The position numbers and the translations under genes were made by a program. Source: Phyllobacterium zundukense (GTDB lineage Bacteria > Pseudomonadota > Alphaproteobacteria > Rhizobiales > Rhizobiaceae). Taken from it: DNA of 64,000 nt. The stretch lies in NCBI RefSeq assembly GCF_002764115.1, contig NZ_CP017940.1:2082501-2146500 (forward strand), written 5' to 3'. Positions 17,380 through 35,423 of the stretch are shown here, piece after piece. Below the pieces are notes generated by a model that saw nothing but the letters and a program-made list of their open reading frames with translations, was not told the origin of the DNA and did not search any database. Numbering within the stretch: position 1 is the first letter of the stretch; the number at the start of each line of letters is the position of its first letter.

Positions 17380-17455
<76 letters not shown>

Positions 17456-17501
17456 TTTTTCTCAATAAAATCAACTACTTATGGTGAACGCCCTACCCTG
17501 C

Positions 17502-17538
17502 TGTGTAGCAGTTTTGTGTGTGTTCCATGTGTAGCATG
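17502..17538. repeat. Left cluster of TGTGTAGCA repeats (integrase arm sites?)
   Basis: TGTGTAGCA occurs at 17502-17510 and 17528-17536, just inside attL. The second copy lies in the 15-bp block TCCATGTGTAGCATG, which is repeated exactly at 35286-35300 at the other end. Short direct repeats on both sides of the core are typical of arm-type binding sites for tyrosine integrases. Confidence 0.6.
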
Positions 17539-17554
17539 ATGAGAGCAACAAGCG

Positions 17555-18280
17555 TCATCTCTTATCAGTTGCACCCTGCAAAGCCGCCTCCCAGAAGCGA
17601 TCAGCCTCTTTTCGATGCATTTTTTCGAACTCTTTAAGTGAAGTATCCACCCCCTTCACTGCCAGAATCGCTGCGTTCATAACGTCGCGCGCGGTATCAA
17701 CCAGCACAAAAAGATTGTCATAGGTGGGAAGCTTTCGATCCGGCACTTTCATAAGGTGATGCGCTATTCGGTAATCACGCAATTGCTTCAATTTCGCGAT
17801 GGCGTGTCGGCCACGTCCAGTAGTTGATAACGAATGGTATGCCCTAATCGCGCGATCGATCGCTTTCTCACAATCTCGAACATGCATTGATTCCAGCTCC
17901 ATACTTGCGGGCGTCCAAACGCGAGCACGTTCGATTAAGGCATCCTTACATCGCTTTTGGCGCAAGAGACGAATAAGCAATGGGATAGAGGCAACGTCCC
18001 TCTTATTTGGATGAGTGAGCTTCCTGCCTTTATCGAACATTCGCGACACAGTGACTGCGAGGGTCAGCATCATGCTTTGAGCAACGGCATTGTACGTCTC
18101 AGCGCCATGATACGGTCTGTCTTTGTCACTGATGACAAAGGCGTTTGCAGCTTCCATCGACGCCTCGATCCAGAGCGCCGACTTCACGTCTTCCTCAAGT
18201 CGTGTGGTCATGTCGTTCACGCGGCCAAGGGCTTCGCCTTTGGTGATCCGGACGGGCTTCTTCTTCTGCTTCTTGCACAT
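17555..18280 (-). CDS. HEPN/AbiU2-like protein, putative abortive-infection factor
   Basis: A 241-residue, mostly helical protein next to attL. The stretch LKQLRDYRIAHHLMK gives an Arg-x5-His motif (R168, H174), as in HEPN ribonucleases, and the arrangement resembles the AbiU2-like HEPN family. The start is the ATG at 18280, seven bases after the preceding gene and preceded by AGGA; two longer starts exist. HEPN proteins of this kind are often RNases in phage defence or toxin systems. RNase activity and defence are inferred from the motif and its place at the end of the element; no antitoxin gene is obvious beside it. Confidence 0.72.
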   Translation of the reverse strand: MCKKQKKKPVRITKGEALGRVNDMTTRLEEDVKSALWIEASMEAANAFVISDKDRPYHGAETYNAVAQSMMLTLAVTVSRMFDKGRKLTHPNKRDVASIPLLIRLLRQKRCKDALIERARVWTPASMELESMHVRDCEKAIDRAIRAYHSLSTTGRGRHAIAKLKQLRDYRIAHHLMKVPDRKLPTYDNLFVLVDTARDVMNAAILAVKGVDTSLKEFEKMHRKEADRFWEAALQGATDKR

Positions 18281-18287
18281 GACCATC

Positions 18288-18806
18288 CTAACCGAATACA
18301 CGGTGCAATAATTGATTGAACAACGGGATTTCAGCCATGAACTTGCTGTAGGCTAGATAGGAACCACCCAATAGGCAAAACGCGGATATCAGGCCAAACC
18401 CAATTCCGGCCCAGAATGTGATAGTGATCCATTTGTTGCTGGGGTGATCATAGTCTGGCCATCCATTCCCCGAGTGCAACATAGCCGGATCGACGCGCTC
18501 ATAAAACGCATAATGCAAAGACCAATTGATCCAAGTGACAAAGCCACACAAGAGCGCAGTCAGTACACCACCAATCGAGCACCAAAAGGTGGACGGCAGT
18601 AGCAACATGGAAAGTCGTTCATTACTAGCAATGAACGCTAAAGCTCCACCGTGTATTAAGATCAATGTTGCGATCAACCACTTGCCATAATCACCTTGAA
18701 GTTGAAAGGTTACCTTCTTTGCCTCTTGGTATTGTTGATATCGCAACTCGCGCGCCTTCCACTCGAAGGCTTGCTGTAGTTCATGTTGAGATGGTGGCAG
18801 TTGCAT
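18288..18806 (-). CDS. Three-helix membrane protein of unknown function
   Basis: A 172-residue protein with a charged N-terminal helix (about 8-36), then hydrophobic helices near residues 43-62, 69-95 and 126-153. The loop between the second and third is soluble and rich in Asp, Pro and Trp. A good AGGAGA site precedes the ATG. It is followed at 7 nt by the HEPN-like gene, so both are probably made together. I do not recognise the family. A membrane effector or a phage accessory protein are both possible. Confidence 0.75.
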   Translation of the reverse strand: MQLPPSQHELQQAFEWKARELRYQQYQEAKKVTFQLQGDYGKWLIATLILIHGGALAFIASNERLSMLLLPSTFWCSIGGVLTALLCGFVTWINWSLHYAFYERVDPAMLHSGNGWPDYDHPSNKWITITFWAGIGFGLISAFCLLGGSYLAYSKFMAEIPLFNQLLHRVFG

Positions 18807-18876
18807 TGAAGTCTCCTAGCTCACGATTTTGAGAAACGGATTCTCCGGCCCAAGATGCATGGGCCGGAGAAGACTG

Positions 18877-19083
18877 CTAGAGACCCAGTTCAAACTGTTC
18901 CGGTGGTGTGTCGGGGAACCGCTTGCCGGTTTTGACTTCGCTTACACGACCCTGATTGATTTCGAGTCGGGCTGCTATGTCATGCTGCATTACGTTCTGC
19001 GCGAGTAATGCCTTGATGCGCGCAGCAATTTTGTCGGTCATCTTGGGAGAATGACGACGAGGCTGTGGACGAAGTGGCTCCAT
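18877..19083 (-). CDS. Small helix-turn-helix DNA-binding protein
   Basis: A 68-residue basic protein. The helices KIAARIKALLAQNVMQHDIA and ARLEINQGRVSEVKTGKRF form a clear helix-turn-helix in which 'INQGRVSEVK' would be the recognition helix. The start is the ATG at 19083, four bases after the stop of the small frame upstream and preceded by AAGGAGAAG. The long frame to 19212 is not needed. It is the only recognisable regulator-like gene in the element, so it may control the lysogeny or cargo genes; this is inference. Confidence 0.75.
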   Translation of the reverse strand: MEPLRPQPRRHSPKMTDKIAARIKALLAQNVMQHDIAARLEINQGRVSEVKTGKRFPDTPPEQFELGL

Positions 19084-19087
19084 GGGC

Positions 19088-19237
19088 CTACTTCTCCTTC
19101 TCTTGCGGCAGACCGTCTTGCTCGAAAAGAAAGAACGCGTTACCGTCGCTGGTGTTACGGGGAAACGAATAGACGCTTCCTTCTTTCCGAGTGACCCGCT
19201 GACGACTGCCAAAGTTGCGATTGCAGGTCATTTCCAT
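19088..19237 (-). CDS. Small hypothetical protein
   Basis: A 49-residue frame beginning MEMTCNRNFGSRQR and ending just before the HTH gene, whose ribosome binding site lies in its last codons. The coupling and the soluble, charged composition make it plausible as a real gene. A second ATG at 19231 and a longer start at 19303 also exist. No family recognised. Confidence 0.4.
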   Translation of the reverse strand: MEMTCNRNFGSRQRVTRKEGSVYSFPRNTSDGNAFFLFEQDGLPQEKEK

Positions 19238-19471
19238 TCTGAAGCCGGTTTGCGCGGGAACGCATGCCGGCTTCAGTAGTTCACGTGACGAATCACGCTT
19301 CAATCAATCTAACGACTGAAACCGGCATTTTGCTAGTGCTTATCAAGTGTTATCCCACGCTAGACACAGAAAGCCTGCGAAATGATCGATAGCGGGAATC
19401 ACGATATTTGCGGGTTGGCAAGCAATTTAAAAAGTTGTTTGCGATTCTTTTGAAGCGATTAATCGTTGAGG

Positions 19472-20227
19472 CTACTTGGCCGCAACGGCGCTGCGCCAAT
19501 CGGCCGACTCAACGATGGAGCAATATTGTTCGAAGGAGGATATGCTTTGGTCAGTATGTTCCACTGAGTAATATTCATCCTTCCGCGTCTGAAGAACTTC
19601 GGAACGCGCGTGTTCAAGGTCGCAGTTAAAGATATCAATCATCGGGGCAGGTTCGCGGGTTTTGTCCGTGTTCAATAAAAAGCCCGAATCTGCCACCGCT
19701 TCACAAAGTCCCGCGAACGAGGTTTCCAGCAATGCCTTGTCGGCACCAGAAAGGCAGATGTCGTCCATATAGATAGACCGGGTGATTTGAGGATCGAGAT
19801 TGCGCAGAAAGATGCCGATCGGTGATAGCGCCACCACCAGAGTAGCAACTATCGGCGATTGCACAAATCCATATGGCACAACGTATCCGCCATCATCATA
19901 GGGATTTTTGACCGTTGACCATTTAGCGTAGTACTCGGGTTTGTTGATGCCAATTTCCTTCAAAGCACGTTTGACGCGATTTCTTTTGACACTGTAAAAA
20001 AATCGCTCGATATCTACTCGGCAGAAGAACTTGTTGGCTCGATGGTCGTGAAGGGCCTGGATATGAGCGCCTTCCCGAAAGTGATAGTTGAAGTCAGCAA
20101 ATTGATACGTGTCTTCGATCTTGGTTTTCAGCTTCTTGCCTAATTTACGTCCGAAATCGTTAGGCGCGTAATAGGGCTTGCCGTTCTTCCAATAAGAATA
20201 CTCGAAGTTCTCGAATTGATGCACCAT
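19472..20227 (-). CDS. Reverse transcriptase with YMDD box (defence-type RT candidate)
   Basis: RNA-dependent DNA polymerase of 251 residues from the ATG at 20227 (AAGG nine bases upstream). An in-frame ATG at 20254 and a TTG at 20269 are alternatives. Motif A is CRVDIERFF (D72), motif B PYGFVQSPIVA (118-128), motif C SIYMDDICLS (YMDD 153-156, catalytic D155 and D156) and motif D SGFLLNTDKT (181-190). There is no maturase, endonuclease or group II intron domain, and the retron VTG motif is replaced by IDIFNCDL. The protein is short, with little after the palm. A hairpin-rich stretch precedes it. This matches the general plan of DRT or retron defence systems, but I cannot place it in a named class. 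Confidence 0.85.
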   Translation of the reverse strand: MVHQFENFEYSYWKNGKPYYAPNDFGRKLGKKLKTKIEDTYQFADFNYHFREGAHIQALHDHRANKFFCRVDIERFFYSVKRNRVKRALKEIGINKPEYYAKWSTVKNPYDDGGYVVPYGFVQSPIVATLVVALSPIGIFLRNLDPQITRSIYMDDICLSGADKALLETSFAGLCEAVADSGFLLNTDKTREPAPMIDIFNCDLEHARSEVLQTRKDEYYSVEHTDQSISSFEQYCSIVESADWRSAVAAK

Positions 20228-20339
20228 AGTTGACGACCTTGCTGAACAGATCATATGCAACACTGACAACCTTCAGAAGAAGGAGGCAGAGCTTCAAGAC
20301 CCGCTCAGCAAGGCGCAAGTGATTCGACTTTTTCTTCAT
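20160..20339 (-). CDS. Small hydrophobic protein overlapping the RT start
   Basis: A 59-residue frame that starts with MKKKSNHLRL after a strong GGAGGGTG site. It contains one hydrophobic segment (about residues 14-30, LKLCLLLLKVVSVAYDLF) and ends 68 bases inside the RT reading frame. It has a better ribosome binding site than the RT, so it could serve to couple RT translation. Alternatively, a frameshift could join it to the RT as an N-terminal extension. No family recognised. Confidence 0.5.
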   Translation of the reverse strand: MKKKSNHLRLAERVLKLCLLLLKVVSVAYDLFSKVVNYGASIRELRVFLLEERQALLRA

Positions 20340-20369
20340 CGAGACACCCTCCATGCTAGACTTCGGCAA

Positions 20370-20590
20370 CCAGCAGCTCTAATCACAAAGAGCAGTCAAC
20401 TGAAGGAAACTGGTATTCCCGAAGCTGCACATGAGGTGTTCCCGTAGGAATACTCAAGGTCAGCCCGCGAGCGCGGTTATCGCCAAAGTCGCGAAATACA
20501 TAGGGACAACTTTGAATAATTACAATGGCAGTTGAAGCCTGTTGCGGTTCTCCCATACGGGAAAGACCGCCGGAGCGGTCTTTCATTGTC
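20370..20590 (-). ncRNA. Putative structured RNA upstream of the reverse transcriptase
   Basis: About 220 bases without a convincing gene lie between the small gene ending at 20614 and the RT unit. Inverted repeats are dense. AAAGACCGC/GCGGTCTTT lies at 20562-20583 (loop CGGA). CAAAGT/ACTTTG is at 20484-20514, CCGC/GCGG at 20465-20476, GTATTCC/GGAATAC at 20413-20453, and GCTCT/AGAGC at 20376-20393. Several DRT systems and all retrons carry a structured RNA just upstream of the RT. The boundaries and strand are inferred. Confidence 0.45.
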
Positions 20591-20613
20591 GTAGCGATCT
20601 AATCAGCGACGTT

Positions 20614-20817
20614 CTAGTCCTTCGCCGGCCATGGGGTGATCATTGAAAGAACAGCTGGGGCTTTGAGGTTAGCCGGCGTGAGTGAAGCCATGTAGGCGCG
20701 GTTCATCTTCCGGATCGACCCAAGGATGTTTTCAGACTTCGGCAAGCGCGAAAACTCCTCCGGAGTCAGTTCCTTACCGTTCACAGCGAACTTGATATCA
20801 GGCTCCCCGCACATCAT
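20614..20817 (-). CDS. Small hypothetical phage protein
   Basis: A 67-residue frame that begins MMCGEPDIKFAVNGKELTPEEF. The ATG overlaps the stop of the upstream gene (ATGA), so it is probably translated by coupling. The composition is soluble and mixed charge. No family recognised. It ends shortly before the structured region in front of the RT. Confidence 0.6.
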   Translation of the reverse strand: MMCGEPDIKFAVNGKELTPEEFSRLPKSENILGSIRKMNRAYMASLTPANLKAPAVLSMITPWPAKD

Positions 20818-20990
20818 GCGAGCGCCTCGTTCAATTCGCCCATGAGCGCCGTCATATCATCACCGTCAGGCGCTTCAGCGCCGAATTGTCTCAATTCGTC
20901 GCGAACAATTTCTTTCTCCTCCCAAGAGAGATCATCGAAGCTTTTAGCCTCATTGTATGGGAAGTCTTGGGGTGGGGTTCTATCAGACAT
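20814..20990 (-). CDS. Small acidic hypothetical protein
   Basis: A 58-residue protein (MSDRTPPQDFPYNEAKSFDD at the start) that is strongly acidic and probably soluble. It has an excellent AGGAGG site six bases before the ATG at 20990. Its stop overlaps the next gene by 4 nt. No family recognised. Acidic small proteins in phages are often inhibitors or DNA mimics, but nothing here proves that. Confidence 0.65.
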   Translation of the reverse strand: MSDRTPPQDFPYNEAKSFDDLSWEEKEIVRDELRQFGAEAPDGDDMTALMGELNEALA

Positions 20991-21091
20991 ATTGCCTCCT
21001 AAAGTGTCTGTAGGAGCTGGATTGTCCTACCTTCAAGTTTATAGCGATGACGGGCCGGCGTGCTCCGCGATATTGTGCGACATTTTGACAT

Positions 21092-21298
21092 TCAAAGTTC
21101 GCGCGCCGTACTGAGTTTCAGGTTCGCGCGTGGAATGATCGGCGCTTCGCACTCTTCCTTGATATCGTCCGGCCAAATGTCCGCAATCTCGCCGAGGGCA
21201 ACGACGATATGGCTGCGAGCGTCCAGCATTCCGGACGGTGATGACTGAAGGGCTGCGACAAGGCGCTCGTAGGCTTCGCGGGGTATGTAGTGGCTCAT
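21092..21298 (-). CDS. Small hypothetical protein
   Basis: A 68-residue frame starting MSHYIPREAYERLVAALQSS with a GGAG site upstream. It has helical N-terminal and central parts (ALGEIADIWPDDIKEE), is acidic overall and has no membrane segment. It is the first of the small genes after the HUH-like gene. No family recognised. Confidence 0.55.
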   Translation of the reverse strand: MSHYIPREAYERLVAALQSSPSGMLDARSHIVVALGEIADIWPDDIKEECEAPIIPRANLKLSTAREL

Positions 21299-21435
21299 TT
21301 GAGTAGCTCCGTTGATGTTGAACGGTGCTTTTATGAGTCATCGCGGAATCGCTGTAAAGCGGATAATTCAATGAAATCAATCAGTTAAATCAACTTTGAT
21401 TTACTATTTTTGCTAACCCATTGGCCGGACTCGAT

Positions 21436-22329
21436 TTAAGGTGCGACATTCTGTCGAAACTGCTTGTGATCACGCTCTGCAATCTTCCGGAGGTTGTTCG
21501 ATATGAATGTGACCTTGTTCGTCATGAGCCGTTCGGCTGCATCGTTACCGGCCTTGTTCAGATATGCCGCCCATCCTAAGCCGTCGGTAAGACTCCTAAA
21601 GACGCACTGGCGCGATGCAGCCTTTCCGGAGCACTTTCCACCCGCGCGCATAAGAACGCCTTTCAGTGACTCGATATGAGTCTTTGACCGATCTTGCGGC
21701 TGAATAGCACCGTGAAGATGCAATACGCCGGAGGGTGAGAATTCCAAGGTGAAGCTGTAGGGAAGCACCTCGTTAAAGGCGTTCGTCATTTCCTTGCCAA
21801 TGTAGCGCGCAATCTGGTTCGCGGGATCGACGTGGTTCAAGAGCATCCTCTCTCGGGCCGGCGAAAGCTTCAGTGTGAAAGCCAAACCCTCACGCCGTCC
21901 AAGAGCTTCGAAACTGGCCGCGAGCTTTTCATGCTGCCAGAGGTGACGCCACTGCTTGACGTAAGGGTCCGGCATTCCGACGACGGCTTGTTCCAGAGCT
22001 TTGGTACGCTTGGGTGATCGCGTGACGGGCGAATGAATGCGTCTGGTAGAGGGCGAATAGAAGGGTGAGAGAGGTAGTGTGTGTAGAGGGGTGGTTGGTA
22101 CTACTACACAAGGTCCGCCGGAAAGCCGCGTAACAGATTGATCAGACTCGCCAATCGGCTGTTTCGCGGCCTTCGATTTTGACACAATATTGGCCGATCG
22201 AGCATCGCCGTTTCGCTCTGCGATAATCTCAAGAATGCGACCGTCTAGCAGCGGTGAATTAGGGTAGCGCGGCAGCGGGCCAGATGCGCTTTTTTTCCGC
22301 GATTTGTGCGGAATATCGAGGCACCCCAT
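21436..22329 (-). CDS. HUH-superfamily replication/relaxase-like protein
   Basis: About 297 residues from the ATG at 22329 (a GTG at 22413 would add 28). The C-terminal half shows the three motifs expected of a rolling-circle endonuclease: a hydrophobic strand LAFTLKL (motif 1), FSPSGVLHLHGAI with His-x-His (motif 2, the metal site), and GLGWAAYLNKAG about 50 residues later with a Tyr-x-x-Lys (motif 3, the DNA nicking tyrosine). The N-terminal 130 residues are Ser/Pro/Lys-rich and probably disordered. This would nick the element's origin for replication. It is unusual among head and packaging genes of a siphophage. The call rests on motifs only. Confidence 0.6.
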   Translation of the reverse strand: MGCLDIPHKSRKKSASGPLPRYPNSPLLDGRILEIIAERNGDARSANIVSKSKAAKQPIGESDQSVTRLSGGPCVVVPTTPLHTLPLSPFYSPSTRRIHSPVTRSPKRTKALEQAVVGMPDPYVKQWRHLWQHEKLAASFEALGRREGLAFTLKLSPARERMLLNHVDPANQIARYIGKEMTNAFNEVLPYSFTLEFSPSGVLHLHGAIQPQDRSKTHIESLKGVLMRAGGKCSGKAASRQCVFRSLTDGLGWAAYLNKAGNDAAERLMTNKVTFISNNLRKIAERDHKQFRQNVAP

Positions 22330-22352
22330 CGAAGTCTTGCTATAATACACTC

Positions 22353-22430
22353 TAGTCACTCCACGTGATGAAATAGTAAGCCAATGACCCCGTATGTGTC
22401 CTTCAACCAGCACGTACGGGGTTTTCTTTG
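22353..22430 (+). ncRNA. Possible antisense RNA over the HUH gene leader
   Basis: On the plus strand an extended -10 (TGCTATAAT, 22338-22346) is followed about 40 bases later by a strong terminator hairpin (22387-22422) and TTTTCTTT. A transcript of roughly 75 nt would be antisense to the leader of the HUH-like gene. No -35 box is evident. Antisense RNAs at this place control rep genes in many rolling-circle plasmids, but here it is inference. Confidence 0.3.
22387..22430 (+). terminator. Hairpin with T-tract, plus-strand orientation
   Basis: ACCCCGTATGTG pairs with CACGTACGGGGT over a 12-base loop (12 pairs, one T-G), followed on the plus strand by TTTCTTTG. There is no T-run on the minus strand. 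No plus-strand gene precedes it, so it may end an antisense RNA or form part of a replication origin. Confidence 0.55.
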
Positions 22431-22471
22431 GTTATAGCGTTTGGAAGTCGGCGTGCTTCGCCAATTTCGAA

Positions 22472-25129
22472 TTATCTTCGCAACATGCCGCCGGGGCGGC
22501 GCTGATTTTGAAGCTCTTCCGCCAAAATAGCCTTGACCGTAGTCCGGACTTCACGAGCCGTTTGGTTCGCTAGATCGGCGTTTTGCTGGGGTGTGCCGCC
22601 GCTCGCGTTGACTGTGACATTAGTTGTCAGGCTGATACCGGGATTGTCGTTGGATGCGCGAGGATGATTGTTGTTCACGCCGGAAAGCTGCGGACGTGGC
22701 AACGAAGGCGGCGCGAAGTTCGGCGCTACCAAGCCGCCATCCGCGTAGCCACGGTGCAGGCGCTCAAGGTTCGCAAGGCCAATCCGGCTCACGGCTTTTT
22801 GGCTCATGACATATTCGCCGCGATGCACCACGCCAGCCGGTTCATACTTGCCGCCGGGGCCGGTATAACCGCCATCGGCAAATCCAAAGATCGCGCCAAG
22901 GATGCCGGTGCCACCTCCGAACAAACCGCCAAGCGGTCCCTCGCCAAGCAAAGCGGCTTGAGCGAGAGCGCTGATCAAAGAGGATAGCAACTGCTGCACG
23001 GCCTGTTCTGCTGTCGTCGCGCCGGTAAGAACGCCGGTCAGGACATCAGTGAAGCCTTGCGCGATAAATTGCTGCGCATCCTTCATCTGTTCCATGCGCT
23101 CTTGAGATTTGCCGGTCGCATCGTCCAAGCGCTGCGTTTCGGTGATCTTGGCACGAATGCCAGCCAGTTCTTGCGGGGTCAGGGTGATACCGGCGCGGCG
23201 CGCTTCTAGTTGGCGCTGATACACGGCCAATTCGATTTGCTGCTGCGATTGCGTCATGCCGGAGATGGATTGCTCGAACTTCGCGAGGTCCAAGCCCTCT
23301 TGTACTGACAGATTAAGGCTCTTACGAGCGTCATTCTGCTGCTTGAGCAAGTCGATTTGCTTCTGCTGTGCAGGCGTGTTCTCAAGCTTCTGTGGCGCTG
23401 TAGGCGTGCCGGAATAGGCTTCACGGATCGTGGAATCATCAACGCGGCGCAAGCCCTCCCATTCGTTCCGGAGTGCATCGGGATCGTTGCCGCGACGGCG
23501 CATCAGCGCGCGCGCAATTTCGTCCTGGGTGTTCTCATCAAACATGCGGTCGCCGGTCAAACCAAGCTGACTCATCATGTCTCGTAGCGTGCCGCTGGTG
23601 ATCTGGTAGCGACCTAGCGCGGATGATCCTTTCCCATTGCCGTAAAGCGCACGGTTCTCAGGCGTCCGCATACTGTCTTGCAAGGCGAGGATTTCAGTAA
23701 GCGTCATGCTGGTGAGATTGCGTGCGCCGCCTGTCCACCGGCCATAATCGAGAGTCTCATTATATCCGCGACCTTTATCAGTGCCTTCCGCCGCGCCGAT
23801 AAGGGAAAGCATATCCTTATGACTGCCGAACGTCGCGGCGGTCTTGGCGCGGTTCGCGGTGTCGGTTGCCGCGCGAACTTCCGACATTGTGCGCGCGTTC
23901 TTGACGGCCTCCCGATAAGCGGTATCGATCGCATCATTCTGTGCAAGCGTATCGAGCTCGGCTTTCAATTCCGGAATGAATTTCTTGAGGTCGGCAAGGG
24001 CAGTTTTGAAATTGGTTGCCGCTGTTACATTGCCATTGAAACCGCTGGAGAGCGAACGGGATGCATCCGATAGCGAACGCATTGCCGTTTCCATATCAAC
24101 GGTGCCATTCTGAAGCTGCCTGATTTCGCGGTCGAGCGCTTCCACGTCCTGCCGAAGCTTCGGCAATTGAAGCATGCGGCCTTTTTCGCCGGTTGCTTCA
24201 ATAGTTGCGATGGACTCAAGCAGCTTCCTCCGTCGCTCCAAAGCACGCTCAAGCGTCGCTTCGTCGGACAAGAAATTGTCCCGGGCGGATGCGACATAGC
24301 CATCGCCTTTCAATTTGCTGATCGTGAGGATGATCTTTTCGGCATAGCTCACGGAATCAATAGCGGCCTTTTTCGCATAGACGCGAACGTTCTGCCAAAG
24401 CGTCTCGAATTCTGCATCGATCTTCTTGGCCGCTTCGATCTGCTCATTGCTAAATGTCGCGGCCTCACTACGAAGCTTCCGAATCTGCTCAACAGAAAGT
24501 CCTAGCACCTTGGCAAGCTGTTCCGCGCCGGTTCCTCCGAACACTTCATCCAATACGCGCGTTTGTCCGGCGCTATCCAATTGCTGAAGCTTGCCGATAA
24601 TCTCATCAAGGAAGCGGTTAGGATCACGCAACCGCTCGGCAACGTCAGCGGCGGAATAGCCAAGGCGCTTAAATGCGTCTTCCGCCGAACCCTTGCCGGT
24701 CTTGGCAAATTCATCGCCGCGAATATTGAGTTCCTTCAAGGCGTCGGTAACGCCGTCAATGGTCGCGCCGGTCGCCTTGGCGACGTATGACCATTGCTGC
24801 CAGACCTGCGACGGCACGCCAGCTTTTCGGGCCTCGCGGTCCACTTCCGCGATGCTGCCGGCAATCTGGGTTACAGCGGTTGCGGTTGCGGCGATAGCTG
24901 CCGTTGCAATTCCTCCAGCCATGAACGGCTTGAACAGGTTTTCCAGTCGCTTGTTAATGCCGTTACCGGCATCAGCCATGGTCTTTTCGATGCGTTGCGC
25001 GTTCTGTTTCGCTCGAGCTTCCAACTTGTCAAACGATTGACCGCCGGCCTTCAGGGCTTGCGCCATGTCGCGCTCGAATTTCTTCGGGCTTGCCTCTAGG
25101 GAAACAATTAGTCTTTCTTCATCAGCCAT
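22472..25129 (-). CDS. Phage tail tape measure protein with embedded muramidase-like domain
   Basis: The 885-residue protein sets tail length during assembly and passes through the tube at infection. The N-terminal part is helical and coiled ([20 protein letters not shown]) with a hydrophobic Ala-rich segment near residue 75. At about 450-560 lies a lysozyme-like insert: [20 protein letters not shown], where E is the likely acid, then [17 protein letters not shown]. The C-terminal part has the glycine-rich [20 protein letters not shown] and [11 protein letters not shown] signature found at tape measure ends. Length predicts a tail somewhat over 100 nm. It is the last structural gene here, and no tail tip gene follows. 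Confidence 0.92.
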
Positions 25130-25139
25130 AGCTATTCCT

Positions 25140-26771
25140 TCACGCCGCGCTCATCAGGCGGTCAAACTCTTCGGGGTCTAGATCGTGGATCGATCCAGTT
25201 GTTTCGGCGTTGCAAGCGCGGCTCACGGCCATAGCGGCGGCAACAGCGCCATCAATGCGATTATTGTTCGCGGCCTTGTGCATCCGGACTAAGCCGGTAT
25301 CTCCGCGCGACGCGACTACGCTATCGAAGTGATGTCGTAGAACCGGATGGCCGTTATGCCGGATCTTGAAACCGTTCACAGTACGTTCAAGATCACCGAT
25401 AGCCGGGGCCATGGTGAGCGGGCCTTGACGCATTGCGAATGCCGGCAAGCCTTCATCAACAAGGTGCTGCATAACGCGCTGCGCTAGGTGCGGATCGAAT
25501 GCGATTTCCTGCACATTAAAGTCCGCACAAAGCTCGCGAATTTTATCTTCAACGATTTCCGGCTCAATGATCGGGCCATCAATGGCGGTGATCAATTCGC
25601 CATCCTTCCAAGCGACATACGGCACGTTATCCTTCGCCGCGCGCGCCTCTAGGTCATCGCCGGGAACGAAAAACCAAGGGTGCACCATGATCCGGCCATC
25701 GTCATACCGCCAAGCCGCAACTACGGCGGTCAAATCGCCGTTCCTCGAAAGATCGACGCCAAGATAGCAAGGCAATTCGCCAAGTTCCGTTGGAAATTCG
25801 TCAAGGTCTAGATCGATCTTTCCTTGATCGTAGACGTTCATGTCGAAGAGCGGATCACGGCTACTAGCCTGCCAAACGTTCAATTTAAACTGTTTGAATT
25901 CGTAGCGGGCTTTAGGCCGGTGTTCGGATTGCCGCGCCGCCTCACGCATTCCGTTAATATCAGGGAAGCCGTAAGCGAGGCCGGGATTGACGCGGTGCCA
26001 AAGGACCTCATCCCGCCAATCGTCCTTTTCAGCGGCTTCAAAGATGATCGGAAGGTAACTCTCGTCTTCAACTTCGCCGGTCGCAACCTTCCGGGCATAT
26101 TCGTATTCTTCAAAACCAAGCGTGCCTTGTCCGCGTCCGGCGGTCGTGGCGATCACCATTAGCGTGTTGCTGATCTTTGCCATGCCGGAACTAAGTGCTT
26201 CGTATAGGTCGCGCTTTTTCCAGTTGTGAATTTCATCAATGAGTACGAATGAGGGCGTCCTACCGTGCTGAGCCGCGCCGTCGCTGGAGACGGCCTGCAA
26301 AACTACGCGCTGCTTCTTGTAGGTGATCCGCTTCGCGCCGTTCGTGGCGTCATTGATCCGCGTTGCGTCGATCAATCGCTTATCCATTCGGACGATATTA
26401 GCGGCCTCGTTGAAACCTACGCCAGCTTGCTCGCGATCGTTTGCAGCAAAGATCACCTGTCCAGCCGGGATATGCTCGGGGCCAATGGTGTGCAAAAGCG
26501 ACAAGGCGGCGGCAAGACTGGTTTTGCGATTGCCACGCGGAATCATGAAGAAAACTTTGGTGACGATGCGCCGGCCATCCGGATGACGCGGACCATAGAT
26601 CGCTCTGACAATCCGTTCCTGCCATGGGTAAAGCTGGAAAGCGGACTTCGATGCGGTGCTATTCGGATGCTTCAGGCGGCGCAGAAATTCAACAGCGCGC
26701 TCGCCATACCCCAAAGGGTCGGCGATTGGTGTGCCGTCAAAAAGCCATTCCGGATAGCTGTTTCTGGTCAT
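25140..26771 (-). CDS. Terminase large subunit (Terminase_1 type)
   Basis: DNA-packaging motor of 543 residues. The ATPase half has the Walker A-like [16 protein letters not shown] (about residue 80) and Walker [11 protein letters not shown] (about 185). The nuclease half begins [16 protein letters not shown] with the metal-binding Asp, and a second acidic site appears in [11 protein letters not shown]. It is complete and of normal length. Its ATG overlaps the small terminase stop by one base, and the tape measure gene follows 10 nt later, an unusual neighbour. Confidence 0.96.
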
Positions 26772-27160
26772 TACGCGACTTCCAAGGGGTTATCGTCGTC
26801 TTCATCTTCGGTCTGTCCCTGTACGCGTGCGCGTGACGTTGGCGACAAGCCATATTCCGCTGCAAGCTGTCGGGCGGTCTGCATTGCGCGGTTCTGCATT
26901 CCGAAGAGAACTTTGTCAGGTGGGCCGCCGGTTGCCCGAAACAGGTCTTCAATTTCGCGGATATGACCACGCGCAACGCAAAAATCTTCGATGCCGCCAA
27001 GATCGGCTTTCGTAATGATCCGGTCTTCGATCAGGCGCGGCATTACGCGCTTCCATTCCGACTTTGCGTAAGTGGTGAAATACTTCGGTGCCGGTGGTGC
27101 TTTGGTGAGCGGATCGCGGTCGCGTGTAAGCGCCGGCTTCACGCCGCGTAAGTGCGTCAT
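26771..27160 (-). CDS. Terminase small subunit, P27 family
   Basis: A 129-residue DNA-recognition partner of the terminase. It has the P27-type outline: a basic N-terminus with Pro-rich PPAPKYFTTYAKSEWKRVMP, a central helical bundle DRIITKADLGGIEDFCVARG, and an acidic tail. Both ends overlap neighbouring genes by a few bases. It recognises the packaging site, whose place is not visible. Confidence 0.88.
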   Translation of the reverse strand: MTHLRGVKPALTRDRDPLTKAPPAPKYFTTYAKSEWKRVMPRLIEDRIITKADLGGIEDFCVARGHIREIEDLFRATGGPPDKVLFGMQNRAMQTARQLAAEYGLSPTSRARVQGQTEDEDDDNPLEVA

Positions 27161-27474
27161 GTCGAGGCCGTTGCTTTCAGGATAAGGCCGCGCCGTCTGC
27201 CAATCTCCGTAATCTCTTTCAGGTCGTAGGGCGTTCCGGAATAGGAAACGCGGTCGGCTGTCGTGAGGCCGGCAAAGTAGTGCATATGGAAAAGGGTCGT
27301 GCCGCTTTCCTCTTCACCGAAGCCGGTCAAAAGCTCCGTCGCGGACTTCTGAATAAGGGCGGCGCGAACCGTGGCGAGGGGTTGCCATTGCTCTTTGACC
27401 GAACCGGATGGTTGCACCACTTTGGTAAGGCGTTCGAGAATGATAACGCGGTCGAAATTGCCGGGACGGGTCAT
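27157..27474 (-). CDS. Head-tail adaptor / head closure protein
   Basis: A 105-residue beta-rich protein beginning MTRPGNFDRVIILERLTK, with QWQPLATVRAALIQKSATEL and VSYSGTPYDLKEITEIGRRR, the pattern of the SPP1 gp16-like head-tail joining family. It starts 2 nt after the preceding gene and overlaps the small terminase start. It would close the head below the portal and connector. Confidence 0.85.
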   Translation of the reverse strand: MTRPGNFDRVIILERLTKVVQPSGSVKEQWQPLATVRAALIQKSATELLTGFGEEESGTTLFHMHYFAGLTTADRVSYSGTPYDLKEITEIGRRRGLILKATAST

Positions 27475-27476
27475 GA

Positions 27477-27896
27477 TTATTCCTTCCACCGAATGACGGC
27501 TTCAAGGCTCAGAACGCCGTGCGTGTAATCCTTCGTCGGGTCCGGGTCTTTCATCCAGCGAACAGACGATTTTTGTAGTTCATCGATAGCGAAGGCCTCC
27601 GGATTTGGGATATCGCGCAACGCATTCATGACGGCAAATCCGATAGATTTAGCCGTATCCTCGCCGTTTTCGATAGCCCAGATATGAGCGTCAACGAACA
27701 CGCGAGCCTGATATTGACTGCCGGCGGCATATCCCAGGAATTGCGTTTGAACGTCCGCAAGCATGATGCAAGGGAAGTTAGCGGGTCGTGTCGATCCGGC
27801 TAAGATCGATGACGCGGAAACAAGGGCCGTCACGTTGATGTCGTTGATTAGACGCGTGCGGATGGCAGTGCGGAAAGCTAGAGAAGGCTCAATCAT
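27477..27896 (-). CDS. Tail completion protein (DUF3168-like)
   Basis: A 139-residue protein starting MIEPSLAFRTAIRTRLINDI, with FPCIMLADVQ and VFVDAHIWAIENGEDTAKSI, typical of the DUF3168/gp17-like tail terminator family at the head-tail interface. Its ATG overlaps the preceding stop (ATGA). It caps the upper end of a tail tube, which makes the absence of a tube gene notable. Confidence 0.82.
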   Translation of the reverse strand: MIEPSLAFRTAIRTRLINDINVTALVSASSILAGSTRPANFPCIMLADVQTQFLGYAAGSQYQARVFVDAHIWAIENGEDTAKSIGFAVMNALRDIPNPEAFAIDELQKSSVRWMKDPDPTKDYTHGVLSLEAVIRWKE

Positions 27897-28312
27897 GGCT
27901 GTTTCCAAACGTCTTTGATGGCCTTGCGACCGGCGCGACTACGGCGGTTTTCCATGCGCTTCCGGAGAAGCTTCAAGGCAATCCAGAAAAACGGCTGTGC
28001 TTCGGCTTCTTTGGTGCCGTATTCGACAAGGTGGGCGTAACGAACGCCGCTATCTCCGGCGGTGACAAGCACTTCCAAGGGGCCGGCAACGCGTGAACCT
28101 CCCGGCTGGGAATATGCCGGGGTTGCTTGGTTCGGGCCGGTTACAGCAATCGATTCCTTCAACGCGCCAGTATCCTCAGGCGCAATTCGCTTCTGAAGGT
28201 TCGCTAATTCAGTCGCGGACTTCTCATTTGCAGGCACTACGGCCTTCACATAGGCCTCCGGCATACGCATGATCTTGGCTTCCAGCCGGTTGAATTGTGC
28301 TGATTTCGCCAT
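27893..28312 (-). CDS. HK97 gp10-like tail component
   Basis: A 139-residue protein starting MAKSAQFNRLEAKIMRMPEA, with LQKRIAPEDTGALKESI, the conserved 'apxdTGaLr.Si' signature of the HK97 gp10-like family, and VRYAHLVEYGTKEAEAQPFF downstream. It acts at the neck between head and tail. The start is one base after the connector gene stop; a longer frame adds six residues. Confidence 0.88.
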   Translation of the reverse strand: MAKSAQFNRLEAKIMRMPEAYVKAVVPANEKSATELANLQKRIAPEDTGALKESIAVTGPNQATPAYSQPGGSRVAGPLEVLVTAGDSGVRYAHLVEYGTKEAEAQPFFWIALKLLRKRMENRRSRAGRKAIKDVWKQP

Positions 28313-28313
28313 T

Positions 28314-28607
28314 CTAGAATACCCATTCACGATAGGGCCGGATCATATCCAGCAAGCCGAAGGGCAATTCGTTGGCGCTATCGCCAATAAGTACAGCGAA
28401 ACGGTTCTCATGAAGGTGTGCTGCAAGCTGCAAGACGCCTTCCGTAAGGTCTGCCGGCATAGGTTCGAAGCTGGAGAGAGGCTTACCCAGAAAATTCTCA
28501 ATCCAAGCTTCGGCGGCGTTCAACTTGTGCTGAAGCAAGTCCGGATCGGCGTCAATTCCCATCAAATCAAGCTGCGCCGCAAGCAGGGAAACAGGTGTAA
28601 TGCTCAT
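28314..28607 (-). CDS. Head-tail connector protein, gp6-like
   Basis: A 97-residue helical protein, starting MSITPVSLLAAQLDLMGIDA, with LLQHKLNAAEAWIENFLGKP and a C-terminal MIRPYREWVF. This matches the DNA-packaging/gp6-like connector family that forms a ring under the portal. Its start overlaps the preceding gene by 4 nt. Confidence 0.85.
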   Translation of the reverse strand: MSITPVSLLAAQLDLMGIDADPDLLQHKLNAAEAWIENFLGKPLSSFEPMPADLTEGVLQLAAHLHENRFAVLIGDSANELPFGLLDMIRPYREWVF

Positions 28608-29227
28608 TGTGATTTTGCCTTTTCAGAAAAAGTTATTTCGGGAGTCTCTTGTAAAGTGCTCCCCGCGCCGGTCCCCTGAGAGGCCGGAAAATTGGAGACT
28701 ACCCCCGGTGCGGTGTTATCGTTCGCATTTGCTGGTTTGCGAACGCCCATAGCGATTGCTTCGACTGGCGAATGACCGCTGTTCATTCGACGATAGATCG
28801 TCGCGGTTTGAACACCTAGCTGTTCCGCCCACTCACGGATGGTGAGTGATTGACCGTTGTAGGTGATCCTTTGAGCCACACGGTTCGGTAAACGTTCGCT
28901 ACCAGCTTTAATTGCTGCTTCGTATGATCCAAGTCTCTTCTTTCGAGCGAGCAACGCGGAAGACGTTAGTCCCAAATGCCGAGCCCACATATCAATGGAC
29001 ATGGTGAGACCATTGACAGTGTATTGTCTCGCGGGCCTCCCAAAGACCCCAAGCGAGTTCTTAATGTTGGAACTGAAGTTCCCGGCAGGCGCTTTGCCAT
29101 GAATGAATTTTAGAACGCGGTTGCGTTCGGCCTCGCGCTTTGCCTTTGCATATGCAAGTGCGCGTTGAAGTGCATCTGCACTGTCACGTTCGAATTCTTC
29201 CCGGTCGATACGTTGGGCGGGTGTCAT
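28604..29227 (-). CDS. Protein with two tandem helix-turn-helix repeats
   Basis: A 207-residue protein of unknown role. Two repeats are visible: VNGLTMSIDMWARHLGLTSS followed by ALLARKKRLGSYEAAIKAG, and YNGQSLTIREWAEQLGVQTA followed by TIYRRMNSGHSPVEAIAMG. Each looks like a small DNA-binding helix-turn-helix of the type found in phage and homing-nuclease proteins. The N-terminus is charged, and the C-terminal 45 residues are disordered. It lies between the HNH nuclease and the connector and overlaps both. It could guide packaging together with the HNH protein; this is inference. Confidence 0.7.
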   Translation of the reverse strand: MTPAQRIDREEFERDSADALQRALAYAKAKREAERNRVLKFIHGKAPAGNFSSNIKNSLGVFGRPARQYTVNGLTMSIDMWARHLGLTSSALLARKKRLGSYEAAIKAGSERLPNRVAQRITYNGQSLTIREWAEQLGVQTATIYRRMNSGHSPVEAIAMGVRKPANANDNTAPGVVSNFPASQGTGAGSTLQETPEITFSEKAKSQ

Positions 29228-29562
29228 GCCTTGGCCCTCTCTTCCCGCTGCTTGTGCCGGTTGTGACAAGGCAGGCAGAGCGGTTGCCAGTTGGCGCGGT
29301 TCCAGAAAAGGCGCTGATTGCCCTTATGCGGCTGGATATGATCGACGCATTGCGCGGGCGCGCCGCACCTGCAAATGGGGTGATGCCGGAGATATTCGGC
29401 GCGGGCTTTCTGCCACTCATTATTATAGCCGCGTTCGCGTGCGCTCGGGCGCGTTAGATCGAAACGGGCTTTACGCTCGCGATCCTGCTTGGCTTGGCAG
29501 GTGCAGCGAACGCCGTGCGCGACGATCTTACCGCATGAGCAAAGATGGGGCGGTCGGGCCAT
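29224..29562 (-). CDS. HNH endonuclease
   Basis: A 112-residue nuclease with an N-terminal zinc-ribbon-like CSCGKIVAHGVRCTC and the HNH core: CRCGAPAQCVDHIQPH, then NRANWQPLCLPCHNRHKQ. HNH proteins next to terminase genes stimulate the terminase and are needed for DNA packaging in HK97-like phages. It overlaps the next two genes by 1-4 bases. Confidence 0.92.
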   Translation of the reverse strand: MARPPHLCSCGKIVAHGVRCTCQAKQDRERKARFDLTRPSARERGYNNEWQKARAEYLRHHPICRCGAPAQCVDHIQPHKGNQRLFWNRANWQPLCLPCHNRHKQREERAKA

Positions 29563-30182
29563 TATTTGACCCTCGCAACGCTGCCGTGCTTGGCGCGAAG
29601 CTTTGCAATCCCGGCGCTCACTTCCTCCGGAGAGATTTCCTCAAGCGGATCGTAAGGCGCCGACGGCTTGTCGGCTGTGTCGCTGCCACTGTGGATATTG
29701 TGAAGCAATTCGATGTGTGCATCACGAGCAAGCATGATTTCAGCCGGCGTGCTGTTCCACACTGTTTCAGGCGTCCAATGAAGCCAGCCGGTTGCATGTG
29801 CAAAAAGCTGGTTAAAGCGCTCTTCAAGCGACAATTCAGGGCCGGACGTGGTTACGGTCGATTTGGATTTCATGGGTTTGGGTTCATGATTGAGGCCGAA
29901 TGACAGGATCAGAAACTCGTAAAGTGCAGGGGCCAGGTTCTCGATTACCTGAGCGCCGTCGCGTTCGATCATGTCATTGAGAAATTCGCGTACTGCAATT
30001 TCATCTGTCGAACCAAGCGCGGCGATATCATAGACAATCCCTAAATTGCAGTCGAAAACGCCGCGCGCGAGTTTGTCATAACCGTGCTTCTGTTCAAGAA
30101 TATATGCGGCTCGCAACGAAGGGCGCAATTCAATGCGCCGGTCGTCATGTGCGAGCATGATAGCTTCTGATACGAGCCGCAT
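29562..30182 (-). CDS. Putative tail assembly chaperone-like protein
   Basis: A 206-residue protein. The first half has ELRPSLRAAYILEQKHGYDK and a helical bundle. The second half has HATGWLHWTPETVWNSTPAE then IMLARDAHIELL, resembling the 'GW.P..FW..TP.E' signature of gene-transfer-agent and phage tail chaperones. The C-terminus is acidic. It sits 13 nt after the capsid gene, away from the tape measure gene where such chaperones usually are. The call is moderate; an unknown morphogenesis protein is possible. Confidence 0.5.
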   Translation of the reverse strand: MRLVSEAIMLAHDDRRIELRPSLRAAYILEQKHGYDKLARGVFDCNLGIVYDIAALGSTDEIAVREFLNDMIERDGAQVIENLAPALYEFLILSFGLNHEPKPMKSKSTVTTSGPELSLEERFNQLFAHATGWLHWTPETVWNSTPAEIMLARDAHIELLHNIHSGSDTADKPSAPYDPLEEISPEEVSAGIAKLRAKHGSVARVK

Positions 30183-30194
30183 ATTCGTGGTTAC

Positions 30195-31763: not shown

Positions 31764-32158
31764 TATGCGGGAACCTGTACTAATGCGTCATCGATGGCGC
31801 TTTCGGCGCTCACTTCGGTTTGTCCAATTTCGTCCTGGGGGATTGTTGCCGGAGCTTCCTTGCGACCGGTCCAAACGTTTTCGAGCAACGTGAAGGCGAG
31901 AGGAATTAGCTCTTCAATCGGCGTCGGCTTGGCGTAGGTCTCGATAAGGCTATGCGCTTCACTAGGGGAAGTGCCGCCGCCGATCAGGCCTAGCCGGATC
32001 GTTTCGAGAAGATCAGCGAAATGAAATTCGAAGGCGAAAACGCGCTTGTAGAATGCGCCAATGCCTACGCCGGTCTTTCGCTCAAGTTCGAAAACCATTT
32101 CAGGCGTGAGTGTGAACGCATGTTCAGCGTCACCGAAGAAAGCGACATGCTTATTCAT
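31763..32158 (-). CDS. GTA-type tail chaperone protein (Phage_TAC-like)
   Basis: A 131-residue protein, MNKHVAFFGDAEHAFTLTPE at the start, with MVFELERKTGVGIGAFYKRV and LETIRLGLIGGGTSPSEAHS. This is the outline of the gene-transfer-agent/TAC family found between capsid and tape measure genes of alphaproteobacterial phages. The C-terminal third is acidic and variable. It is coupled by ATGA overlap to the small gene before it, and to the capsid gene after it. Confidence 0.75.
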   Translation of the reverse strand: MNKHVAFFGDAEHAFTLTPEMVFELERKTGVGIGAFYKRVFAFEFHFADLLETIRLGLIGGGTSPSEAHSLIETYAKPTPIEELIPLAFTLLENVWTGRKEAPATIPQDEIGQTEVSAESAIDDALVQVPA

Positions 32159-33571: not shown

Positions 33572-33669
33572 AAAACATTCCTTAGCGCATCACATAAGAA
33601 TATTGTCTCATGCGCTAGGAATCTATTCAACCAGAAAGTGTGTAAAGTTATTAAGAAATCTTGGTAACT

Positions 33670-35274
33670 TTACAGAATTACTGGAAATTTCCGCATTTCT
33701 TCTGCCAATGCTGGTAGCATAGCATCTGACTTTCCATATAGAGCGCCAGAGCCGGCCATTGCGCGACCAGTGATGTAATATGCAGCCTCTTGGCTCAGCT
33801 TGCCAAAGCGCAAATCTTCGAAGAGATGCCGGAAGCCGTGATTAGGTGCCGGACTGTTTTCCTTCCTGCCGGTCATAACCTTCTCACGTATCCAGTCACG
33901 GGTGTTCTGTTCAACGCGAACATGGGTGAACAATCGACCTTTCGGCGCGGCGTTGACGAAAAGCAGGAAACCCTCTTTGACGATAGCTGGATGAATCGGA
34001 ACCTTCCTCCCCTTCATCGTTTTAGTGGTGCGATCTCCGCCGACGCGAATTTGAAAGTACCAGTCGTCACCGATGTTGAAAATATCGTCCTTCTCAAGCT
34101 GAATAAGCTCGCCGATGCGCGCGCCGGAATAAGCCGCTAGCCAAGGAAGCCACCGGAAATGCGGCAACGTTTGTGCGCGGGCGGCTTTCAAAACCTTCTG
34201 CGCTTGAGCAATTGTATAGGTCTTTTTCGCGCTATCAGTCGCTTCTGCAATTGGTAGGTCTAAGTGTTCCAGTGGAAAGCCCTTCGGAAACAGCTTGCCG
34301 TTCGACTGCTTCAAGCCCCAATTCAGGACCGCCCTAACGGTTGCTACCTTGTCACGCACGGTCTTGCGCTGGTCGGTCGTAAGCAGATGATCACGCCATT
34401 GCTCGACTTCCTCTTTCGTGACGGTTGCGGCGCGGCTGCTTCCACGCCATTTTGCAAAACCTTCCACCTGTGTCCGGTATTTTGTGAATGTTCGGGGTGA
34501 CTTGCGACCTCCCCCTAGACCGTTCTCCGATAGCCGCTCTTGCTCTTTGATGATGGCTTCAAAGCTTGTGTTATCGAGCGGCGCAAGGTTTGTATCGGAC
34601 AGGATCGGGTCAGATGGAACGCCGGAGTAATCTCCCCTGTCCCGTTCGAAGGTCCGCTTCAAGAATTCGATCTCGCCTCTAAGCAGCCGGTGACACATTT
34701 CCTTGTAGGCCGGACTATCCCTTTCGATAATCAGCTTGTGGCGAGCAATGAACTCGTCGGCTGCATACTGTATGAGTGCAGTTTCGCCGGTTGTCAGATG
34801 TTGCTGAAGCACGTCGACTCTCACGCTTCGATTGTATGCATCGGTTTTGGCGCGGTCTTTCAACACCATGAAATCAAGCGAAGCGTCCATAACTGCGAAC
34901 GGATCGTTGATATCGAGGCCGGTTCGTTGTGCGTCCGATATCATCGCCTGTTTCGCCGTCTCGATTTGCTCGGGGCTTGGTCGGCGCATTCGTTCATCAT
35001 GGTCGCGTTCCAATTCCCGCCGGTAATGCTCGCTTACTGCTGCCCGCATGTCAGTTTCCGTGAAGGTGCGGCGCTCGCGAAGGTCTTCAAACTCGCGTTC
35101 CCAAGCATCGATTACGGCGCGAGCTTTCTTCTTGGCTTCCCGATAATCGCTCGTACCGAGCGATTTGGTTAGTTCGGAGCGCCTCACTACGTCCACCAAG
35201 TCAGCGGGAACGCGCAACCTTGCCTGATAATTCACGGTGCCTTTTCGGCGGGAAATGTTGCCGGTAATAGCCAT
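33670..35274 (-). CDS. int: Tyrosine recombinase (phage integrase)
   Basis: A 534-residue site-specific recombinase for insertion into tRNA-Val. The N-terminal domain opens KGTVNYQARLRVPADLVDVV (DUF6538-like arm-binding part) and is followed by a helical core-binding region. The catalytic domain shows box I AYSGARIGELIQL, box II NHGFRHLFEDL and the nucleophile Tyr513 in GSGALYGKSD. It lies 124 bases from attR, with repeated TGTGTAGCA sites upstream. It is complete. No separate excisionase is recognised. Confidence 0.95.
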   Translation of the reverse strand: MAITGNISRRKGTVNYQARLRVPADLVDVVRRSELTKSLGTSDYREAKKKARAVIDAWEREFEDLRERRTFTETDMRAAVSEHYRRELERDHDERMRRPSPEQIETAKQAMISDAQRTGLDINDPFAVMDASLDFMVLKDRAKTDAYNRSVRVDVLQQHLTTGETALIQYAADEFIARHKLIIERDSPAYKEMCHRLLRGEIEFLKRTFERDRGDYSGVPSDPILSDTNLAPLDNTSFEAIIKEQERLSENGLGGGRKSPRTFTKYRTQVEGFAKWRGSSRAATVTKEEVEQWRDHLLTTDQRKTVRDKVATVRAVLNWGLKQSNGKLFPKGFPLEHLDLPIAEATDSAKKTYTIAQAQKVLKAARAQTLPHFRWLPWLAAYSGARIGELIQLEKDDIFNIGDDWYFQIRVGGDRTTKTMKGRKVPIHPAIVKEGFLLFVNAAPKGRLFTHVRVEQNTRDWIREKVMTGRKENSPAPNHGFRHLFEDLRFGKLSQEAAYYITGRAMAGSGALYGKSDAMLPALAEEMRKFPVIL

Positions 35275-35285
35275 TCGGAAACTGC

Positions 35286-35397: not shown

Positions 35398-35423
35398 GTT
35401 CGAGTCTCTCATCGCCCACCATT
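35398..35423. repeat. attR core, 26-bp direct repeat copy 2
   Basis: Second copy of the tRNA-Val 3' segment, about 125 bases from the integrase start and not part of a full tRNA. It marks the right end of the element. Chromosomal sequence before hupE resumes after it. Confidence 0.95.

What the first reader, a model, noticed from the sequence alone, without database searches (positions are those of the whole stretch)
19472..20600. Short YMDD reverse transcriptase with hairpin-rich DNA upstream: candidate new defence RT or retron-like system
The gene has RT motifs A-D and no intron, maturase or integrase partner. It is only about 250 residues long and lacks the retron VTG motif. About 220 bases directly upstream are non-coding and full of inverted repeats, as in DRT systems with a templating RNA and in retrons. 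It sits among cargo genes of an integrated phage-like element, the usual home of such systems.
Basis: partly seen in the sequence, partly recalled or inferred. Interest (0 to 1): 0.82.

Follow-up and report, generated by a model that had tools for sequence, protein, structure and literature searches.

The report
Compact retron-like system with mini-protein
A short bacterial reverse transcriptase comes as a set with a folded RNA and an unannotated tiny protein, carried on mobile elements; it looks like a stripped-down relative of the retron anti-phage systems for which no description was found.

Summary
The gene is real: an intact 251-residue reverse transcriptase (RT), minus strand 20227-19472, of a discrete family of about 250-residue RTs (192 relatives found; loci read in alpha-, beta- and gammaproteobacteria) without a close match among retron and UG/DRT profiles. 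Its upstream DNA holds, in fixed order, a promoter-like pair, a 132-nt RNA element with paired ends (20490-20359) and an unannotated small ORF (20339-20160, 59 aa, helical) that overlaps the RT start and in two viral lineages is fused to the RT. Pairing is backed by compensatory change in two separate sets (30 alpha, 29 beta/gamma loci). In 47 of 59 rows the outer stem is followed by the AG of the retron priming site; the window has AA. The RT lacks VTG, exact NAXXH and the ~90-aa region Y, so I call it retron-like and do not file it as a retron. It sits on an 18-kb phage-derived element with 26-bp att repeats. Best reading: a minimal retron-like defence module in which a tiny helical protein serves as RT subunit or leashed effector. 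Four divergent alpha relatives gave no RNA match. cDNA synthesis, defence and the small protein's role are untested.

The parts
20520..20525 (-). -35-like TTGTAA
   Evidence: TTG aligned in the 26 alpha rows; coordinates; no promoter scan was run
20497..20502 (-). -10-like TATGTA, 17-nt spacer; predicted RNA start just before the 5' arm
   Evidence: inferred from consensus and conservation only
20359..20490 (-). structured RNA element (132 nt); covariance model R1 hit 20354-20497, 95.9 bits
   Evidence: in the own genome only two good hits, both beside an RT copy; the window is one of the model's 30 rows
20479..20490 (-). 5' arm of outer stem (a1-like) GACTTTGGCGAT, followed by AACC
20371..20399 (-). 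hairpin adjoining the 3' arm
   Evidence: 10 pairs, 4 with two-sided changes, 91.6% of cells paired over 30 rows
20359..20370 (-). 3' arm of outer stem (a2-like) GTTGCCGAAGTC
20347..20352 (-). Shine-Dalgarno-like GGAGGG of the small ORF
   Evidence: SD-like word within 18 nt in 60 of 62 loci
20160..20339 (-). small ORF, 59 aa, basic N-terminus, hydrophobic helix ending in conserved NY; overlaps RT start by 68 nt
   Evidence: frame open in 61 of 62 loci; unpicked test; alignment A3; AF2 one helix; natural RT fusions
19472..20227 (-). compact RT, 251 aa
17432..17457 (.). att repeat (3' end of tRNA-Val 17380-17455)
35398..35423 (.). att repeat, second copy
33670..35274 (-). integrase of the element
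   Evidence: phrog_1 E 7e-23

Best explanation
A minimal retron-like module. Shown by sequence: a fixed order of promoter-like pair, a folded RNA whose ends pair, a small helical protein, and a compact RT that mostly starts inside the small gene; the set is found together in alpha-, beta- and gammaproteobacterial loci. Inferred: the RT binds this RNA and copies part of it into DNA, starting next to the 3' arm of the outer stem as retrons do. The small protein, made in step with the RT through overlapping translation, is a subunit of the RT-RNA particle or an effector held by it. The particle guards its host or element against phages, probably by harming the infected cell when the particle is disturbed.
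For: RNA: outer stem and 3' hairpin 89.8% paired in 30 alpha rows versus 34-45% when slid and 80.9% in column shuffles, covariation 0.423 versus 0.061-0.131 slid and 0.243 shuffled. A separate beta/gamma set of 29 rows: 97.4% versus 28-43% slid and 88.2% shuffled, 0.400 versus 0.059-0.140 and 0.209. AG follows the 5' arm at one place in 29 of 29 beta/gamma and 18 of 30 alpha rows, the place of the retron priming guanosine (PMC6868368, passages). RT: Foldseek's 11 best PDB rows are chains of retron complexes. In the tree the family (16 rows, 100/100) lies on the retron side of the split from group II and DRT rows, support 84/72, not starred. The best PADLOC hit is retron RT_I-B, 57 bits; 46 families match and none of the 25 shown is UG/DRT. 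Small protein: frame open in 61 of 62 loci, other frames 0 and 3; without choosing the start, 64 of 68 loci have an open non-RT frame over -90..0 versus 45% in shuffles. It is fused in frame to the RT in L055 and L057. Mobile, defence-like setting: patchy, 3 of 99 related genomes with the own one (a fourth match is another RT); neighbours include short Argonaute/SIR2, SduA, AbiEi, type I specificity subunits, integrases and resolvases.
Confidence: 0.57

Rival explanations
1. DRT-like mechanism: the RNA is a template, but DNA synthesis does not start from a branched guanosine. It is primed by the protein (perhaps by the small protein) or runs repeatedly over the template, as in DRT2, DRT9 or DRT10.
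For: AG is not at the priming place in the window and in 11 other alpha rows. DRT systems with ncRNA and protein priming are known (PMC12483538 and PMC12632851, starts of abstracts in search listings).
Against: No UG/DRT profile is among the 25 PADLOC hits shown, so any unseen one has at most 26.3 bits. The RT lies apart from the four DRT/UG rows in the tree, though these have long branches. The AG is invariant in the 29 beta/gamma rows.
Confidence: 0.2
2. The small protein is a free membrane toxin, and the RT-RNA-DNA particle is its antitoxin.
For: Basic N-terminus and hydrophobic stretch; best 19-residue Kyte-Doolittle mean is 1.6 or more in 39 of 48. One helix, confident at residues 11-30.
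Against: The most hydrophobic 19 residues hold 1-4 charges in 46 of 48. In-frame fusions to a cytoplasmic enzyme fit a single-pass membrane protein with a basic, inside N-terminus poorly (topology argument is inference).
Confidence: 0.25
3. The structured RNA is only a cis-acting leader that tunes translation of the two genes, and the RT works on other RNAs.
For: The element ends 16-22 nt before the small ORF start in the 29 beta/gamma rows; in the own genome R1 finds it only beside the RT copies.
Against: In the window the outer stem does not cover the ribosome-binding site. The paired ends, the AG site and the place at the predicted 5' end match msr-msd layout (PMC6868368, passages).
Confidence: 0.12

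Closest known systems
Retrons (types I-XIII of PADLOC; Ec86, Eco8 structures)
   Same: RT fold and tree side; RNA directly upstream whose two ends pair; AG after the 5' arm in most relatives; mobile and defence-like setting; small gene cassette.
   Different: RT of about 250 aa instead of 300-400; no VTG, no exact NAXXH, short C-terminus; tiny overlapping protein instead of a known effector; 57 bits against the best typed model, where the 23 retron references scanned scored 234-752 bits against their best one.
DRT/UG systems with ncRNA (DRT2, DRT9, DRT10)
   Same: RT with a conserved RNA beside it; defence islands and prophages (recalled).
   Different: Sequence profiles and tree side differ; the RT is far shorter (DRT2, DRT9 and UG17 models of 425-502 positions); different RNA layout (recalled).
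Group II intron, group II-like and DGR RTs
   Same: RT core motifs; VIA Z within 1 of retrons for DGR and group II.
   Different: No maturase domain or Rfam intron hit, no TR/VR repeat found nearby; the family is apart from the 7 rows taken as group II. DGR RTs were not in the tree.

Membership tests
retron | 5' and 3' ends of the RNA complementary (about 8-30 nt) | tested here: met
   12-pair outer stem in alpha, 8-pair in beta/gamma, co-varying
retron | priming guanosine in (T)AGC-type context after the 5' arm | tested here: not met
   Window reads GGCGATAACC; 18 of 30 alpha and 29 of 29 beta/gamma rows do have AG. Retron Sen1 is also noted as lacking an apparent priming G (PMC6868368, passages)
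retron | NAXXH in region X | tested here: not met
   H kept, A mostly kept, N replaced (window QALHDH); in the 2014 survey NAXXH was found in 59% of retron/retron-like RTs (PMC4244168, passages)
retron | VTG at the start of region Y | tested here: not met
   FN in its place, invariant in 32 aligned relatives and in the 16 family rows; reported in 47% of retron/retron-like RTs plus I/L variants (PMC4244168, passages)
retron | RT of about 300-400 aa with ~90-aa region Y | tested here: not met
   251 aa; about 50 aa after the FN site; yardstick from PMC6868368, passages
retron | RT falls in the retron clade | tested here: inconclusive
   Retron side of the split 84/72, but not nested with support
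retron | makes msDNA | not testable with these tools
   needs nucleic acid extraction and sequencing
DRT/UG RT groups | match to a UG/DRT profile | tested here: not met
   none among the 25 shown of 46 PADLOC families, so at most 26.3 bits; NCBIfam Drt3a 23.8 bits against a cut-off of 200, Drt5 18.9 against 550
group II intron RT | clusters with group II RTs; intron RNA or maturase | tested here: not met
   Rfam gathering hits in the window are two tRNAs only
DGR | TR/VR repeat pair near the RT | tested here: inconclusive
   no direct repeat of 30 nt or more in 17400-24500 except one 73% pair; a pair outside that stretch was not looked for; tree placement with DGRs not tested

The most novel reading that the evidence does not exclude
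A separate class of RT-based immunity: a retron relative that lost region Y and its usual partner genes and works with a 40-75-residue helical protein encoded across the RT start. That protein would be at once a missing RT part and the effector, and in the window's branch DNA synthesis would start without the canonical guanosine.
Probability: 0.35. Interest if true: 0.85.

Novelty: new variant of a known kind. Interest (0 to 1): 0.74.

Why it matters
Retrons and DRTs are among the best-studied new bacterial immune systems, and their RTs are used as editing tools. This set is unusually small (251-aa RT, 132-nt RNA, 59-aa protein). Its natural lack of region Y and, in the window's branch, of the priming AG makes two open questions testable: how such RTs recognise their RNA and how they start DNA synthesis. 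It also escapes present annotation: in the annotated plasmid records that I read the RT is only a reverse transcriptase domain-containing protein and no CDS covers the small ORF's place; that gene table is incomplete.

Tried and rejected
Group II or CRISPR origin: not supported. DGR: no repeats found nearby, otherwise open. Known typed retron or UG/DRT: no close profile match. A conserved larger partner gene: none across the family in the clustering of 668 neighbour ORFs of 62 loci; one downstream convergent ORF recurs in 7 close Rhizobiaceae loci, and the window's neighbours do not cluster with it. Rfam: gathering hits only to tRNAs in the window and in six relatives. An unguided search for the best stem in single sequences did not beat the best of 20 shuffles in most loci; only the aligned comparison is decisive. 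Single-protein scans of viral and genome contigs found no relative; the alignment scans did. R1 matched 34 of 54 searched sources at E 6.3e-11 or better; the 20 without a match are 15 beta/gamma loci, four divergent alpha loci (L032, L046, L068, L081) and partial L015. BFVD structural matches were unspecific. A third hairpin between outer stem and 3' hairpin looks conserved by eye in alpha loci but was not counted. Literature: ten searches showed no description of this family; the library is open-access only, two classification papers that I asked for by DOI are not held, and retron type names rest on PADLOC labels. Papers: myRT (PMC8934634) outline and two sections, PMC6868368 and PMC4244168 passages, PMC12548924 a term search without a find, others search listings only.

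Rows dropped before counts. Broken, partial or edge-cut: L015, L029, L047, L079. Non-family: L069. L027 and L026 have frame-broken RTs but stayed in the RNA sets. Left out of A4: near copies L008, L010, L074, L075, L079. L062 was in the first beta alignment but I left it out of the counted set A5; its outer stem was not found. L032, L046 and L068 were in no covariation set. L105 and L106 are family members not read upstream; L081 was used only. The small-ORF start offsets for one search were picked by me; one search is the unpicked check; L055, L057, L080 and L082 were checked apart. The tree uses 16 chosen family rows and 30 references chosen from 70 fetched loci; of the 7 rows taken as group II only L118 and L143 were profile-scanned (generic RT model best), the others are labelled by my judgement. 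Neighbour scan: 108 of the 145 ORFs listed, from 41 genome loci. Confidence in the best explanation went from 0.58 to 0.57 for the four RNA misses.

Full report
What is there. On the minus strand of the window, 20227-19472 encodes an intact RT of 251 residues (RVT_1 E 1.4e-14). AlphaFold2 with 32 aligned sequences gives mean pLDDT 92.5 and pTM 0.87: after the catalytic part come four short strands and two helices, so the chain ends early and is not cut off. A search of 5.8 billion proteins found 192 relatives (120 listed, nearly all of 244-299 residues). The catalytic Y[MV]DD is kept in 31 of the 32 that I aligned. The same genome holds a second copy, 62% identical. The family is patchy: 3 of 99 genomes of the relatives search, own genome included (a fourth match, L069, is another RT), and 5 of 397 of the order, own included.

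What the upstream DNA is. Related loci came from genome and viral contigs (45 and 19 returned), eight plasmid records and a phage. Aligned to the RT start, they show the same plan: a -35/-10-like pair; a 5' arm; a variable middle with hairpins; a 3' hairpin; the 3' arm; a Shine-Dalgarno; a small ORF; and the RT starting in or just behind that ORF. In 30 alpha rows the outer stem and the 3' hairpin pair in 89.8% of cells versus 34-45% when slid by 1-3 columns and 80.9% in column shuffles (0 of 500 as high); 11 pairs have two-sided changes (11 of 500 shuffles reach that), 67 cells do (shuffled mean 18.6), and the covariation score is 0.423 versus 0.061-0.131 slid and 0.243 shuffled. A separate set of 29 beta/gamma rows gives 97.4% versus 28-43% slid and 88.2% shuffled, 57 cells with two-sided changes versus 15.3 shuffled, and 0.400 versus 0.059-0.140 and 0.209; the number of pair types (17) is no better than shuffled. 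Across the sets the arms differ (for example GACTTTGGC/GCCGAAGTC, CCTGACG/CGTCAGG, CTCGACG/CGTCGAG) yet stay complementary. Caveat: the structures were read off these rows. A covariance model from the alpha rows (R1) finds 34 of 54 searched sources at E 6.3e-11 or better, each close upstream of the RT; it misses 15 beta/gamma loci, the divergent alpha loci L032, L046, L068 and L081, and partial L015. In the own genome it finds only the two RT-linked places (E 8.6e-25 and 5.5e-21), next best E 1.06. Rows that built the model match it by construction. The single-sequence fold alone would not have convinced (z -1.58).

The priming site. Retron RNAs carry a priming guanosine, mostly in TAGC, at the inner end of the paired 5' arm (PMC6868368, passages). 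At that place 29 of 29 beta/gamma rows read AG, as do 18 of 30 alpha rows; the window and 7 others read AAC, and 4 rows deviate otherwise. One close pair (L014, L077) differs exactly there. So the layout is retron-like, but the window's branch fails the classic priming rule.

The small protein. No annotation that I saw lists it (incomplete gene table). It was first seen as a 69-aa overlapping frame. The frame is open in 61 of 62 loci and the other two frames in 0 and 3; the one exception, L058, has its own stop just before the RT start. Without choosing starts, 64 of 68 loci have an open non-RT frame over the last 90 nt before the RT, versus 45% in shuffles. It has a basic start, a hydrophobic helix and a near-invariant Tyr, mostly in an NY motif (alignment of 48). 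AF2 gives one helix, confident at residues 11-30. Selection evidence is weak: dN/dS 0.25-0.61 in several close pairs but 0.85 in another and above 1 in some, median 0.71 over 351 pairs, mostly distant. In L055 and in L057 (identical at this locus in L054 and L056) the frame runs into the RT without a stop, a natural fusion of about 300 residues; the near relatives L058 and L080 keep two genes. This ties the small protein to the RT and makes a freely acting single-pass membrane toxin less likely. The most hydrophobic 19 residues carry 1-4 charges in 46 of 48.

Setting. The module lies towards one end of an 18-kb phage-derived element bounded by 26-bp repeats of the tRNA-Val 3' end, with integrase, portal, capsid/protease, large terminase and tape measure and, downstream of the RT, a HEPN AbiU2-like gene (E 1.6e-12). 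Among 108 neighbours from 41 loci, PADLOC and Pfam name short Argonaute/SIR2, SduA, AbiEi, type I specificity subunits, PLD helicase, integrases and resolvases, each in 2-4 members of capped lists. There was no background control, so this is a setting and not a test.

Mechanism. Shown: one conserved cassette of RNA, small protein and RT. Inferred from the retron likeness: the RT uses the RNA as primer and template. Inferred from fusion and overlap: the small protein works as part of the RT particle. Inferred from setting: defence. Each step has a bench test listed under next steps. I rate the cassette itself at above 0.95, the retron-like use of the RNA at about 0.65 and defence at about 0.7.

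Known or new. By my tests it fails NAXXH, VTG, RT length and, in the window, the priming G, so it is not filed as a retron, although the 2014 survey counted many retron-like RTs without these motifs (PMC4244168, passages). I found no description of it in ten full-text searches of an open-access library; that is not proof of absence.

Noticed in passing
window 17432-35423: An 18-kb element between tRNA-Val att repeats carries integrase, portal, capsid, large terminase and tape measure but looks too small for a whole phage; a capsid-forming satellite or a decayed prophage (my guess).
   Followed up: partly
window 17555-18301 and 18288-18806, minus strand: A HEPN AbiU2-like protein (E 1.6e-12) overlaps a protein that looks membrane-bound by eye and has no family hit, next to the tRNA end of the element: possible second defence cargo.
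   Followed up: no
L002 838-1549 relative to the RT start, and L003, L004, L008, L009, L010, L015: A convergent ORF of about 190-250 aa, with a membrane-like stretch by eye, lies just downstream of the RT in 7 close Rhizobiaceae loci; no such cluster member in the window.
   Followed up: partly
L010 and L031 downstream: Two adjoining ORFs shared by these unrelated hosts look like the short Argonaute/SIR2 pair that PADLOC names in 4 neighbour proteins.
   Followed up: partly
L055 and L057, RT start: The small ORF and RT are one reading frame; L058 differs from L055 by a small indel at the junction.
   Followed up: yes
window 21436-22413, minus strand: A 325-aa ORF beside the tape measure gene has no Pfam or PHROG hit at the limits used.
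   Followed up: no
L079, L027, L015: Broken or truncated RT copies; L079 and L027 still match the RNA model (102 and 113.7 bits), L015 does not.
   Followed up: no
L032, L046, L068, L081: Divergent alpha family members without a match to the alpha RNA model; their upstream RNA may be of another subtype.
   Followed up: no
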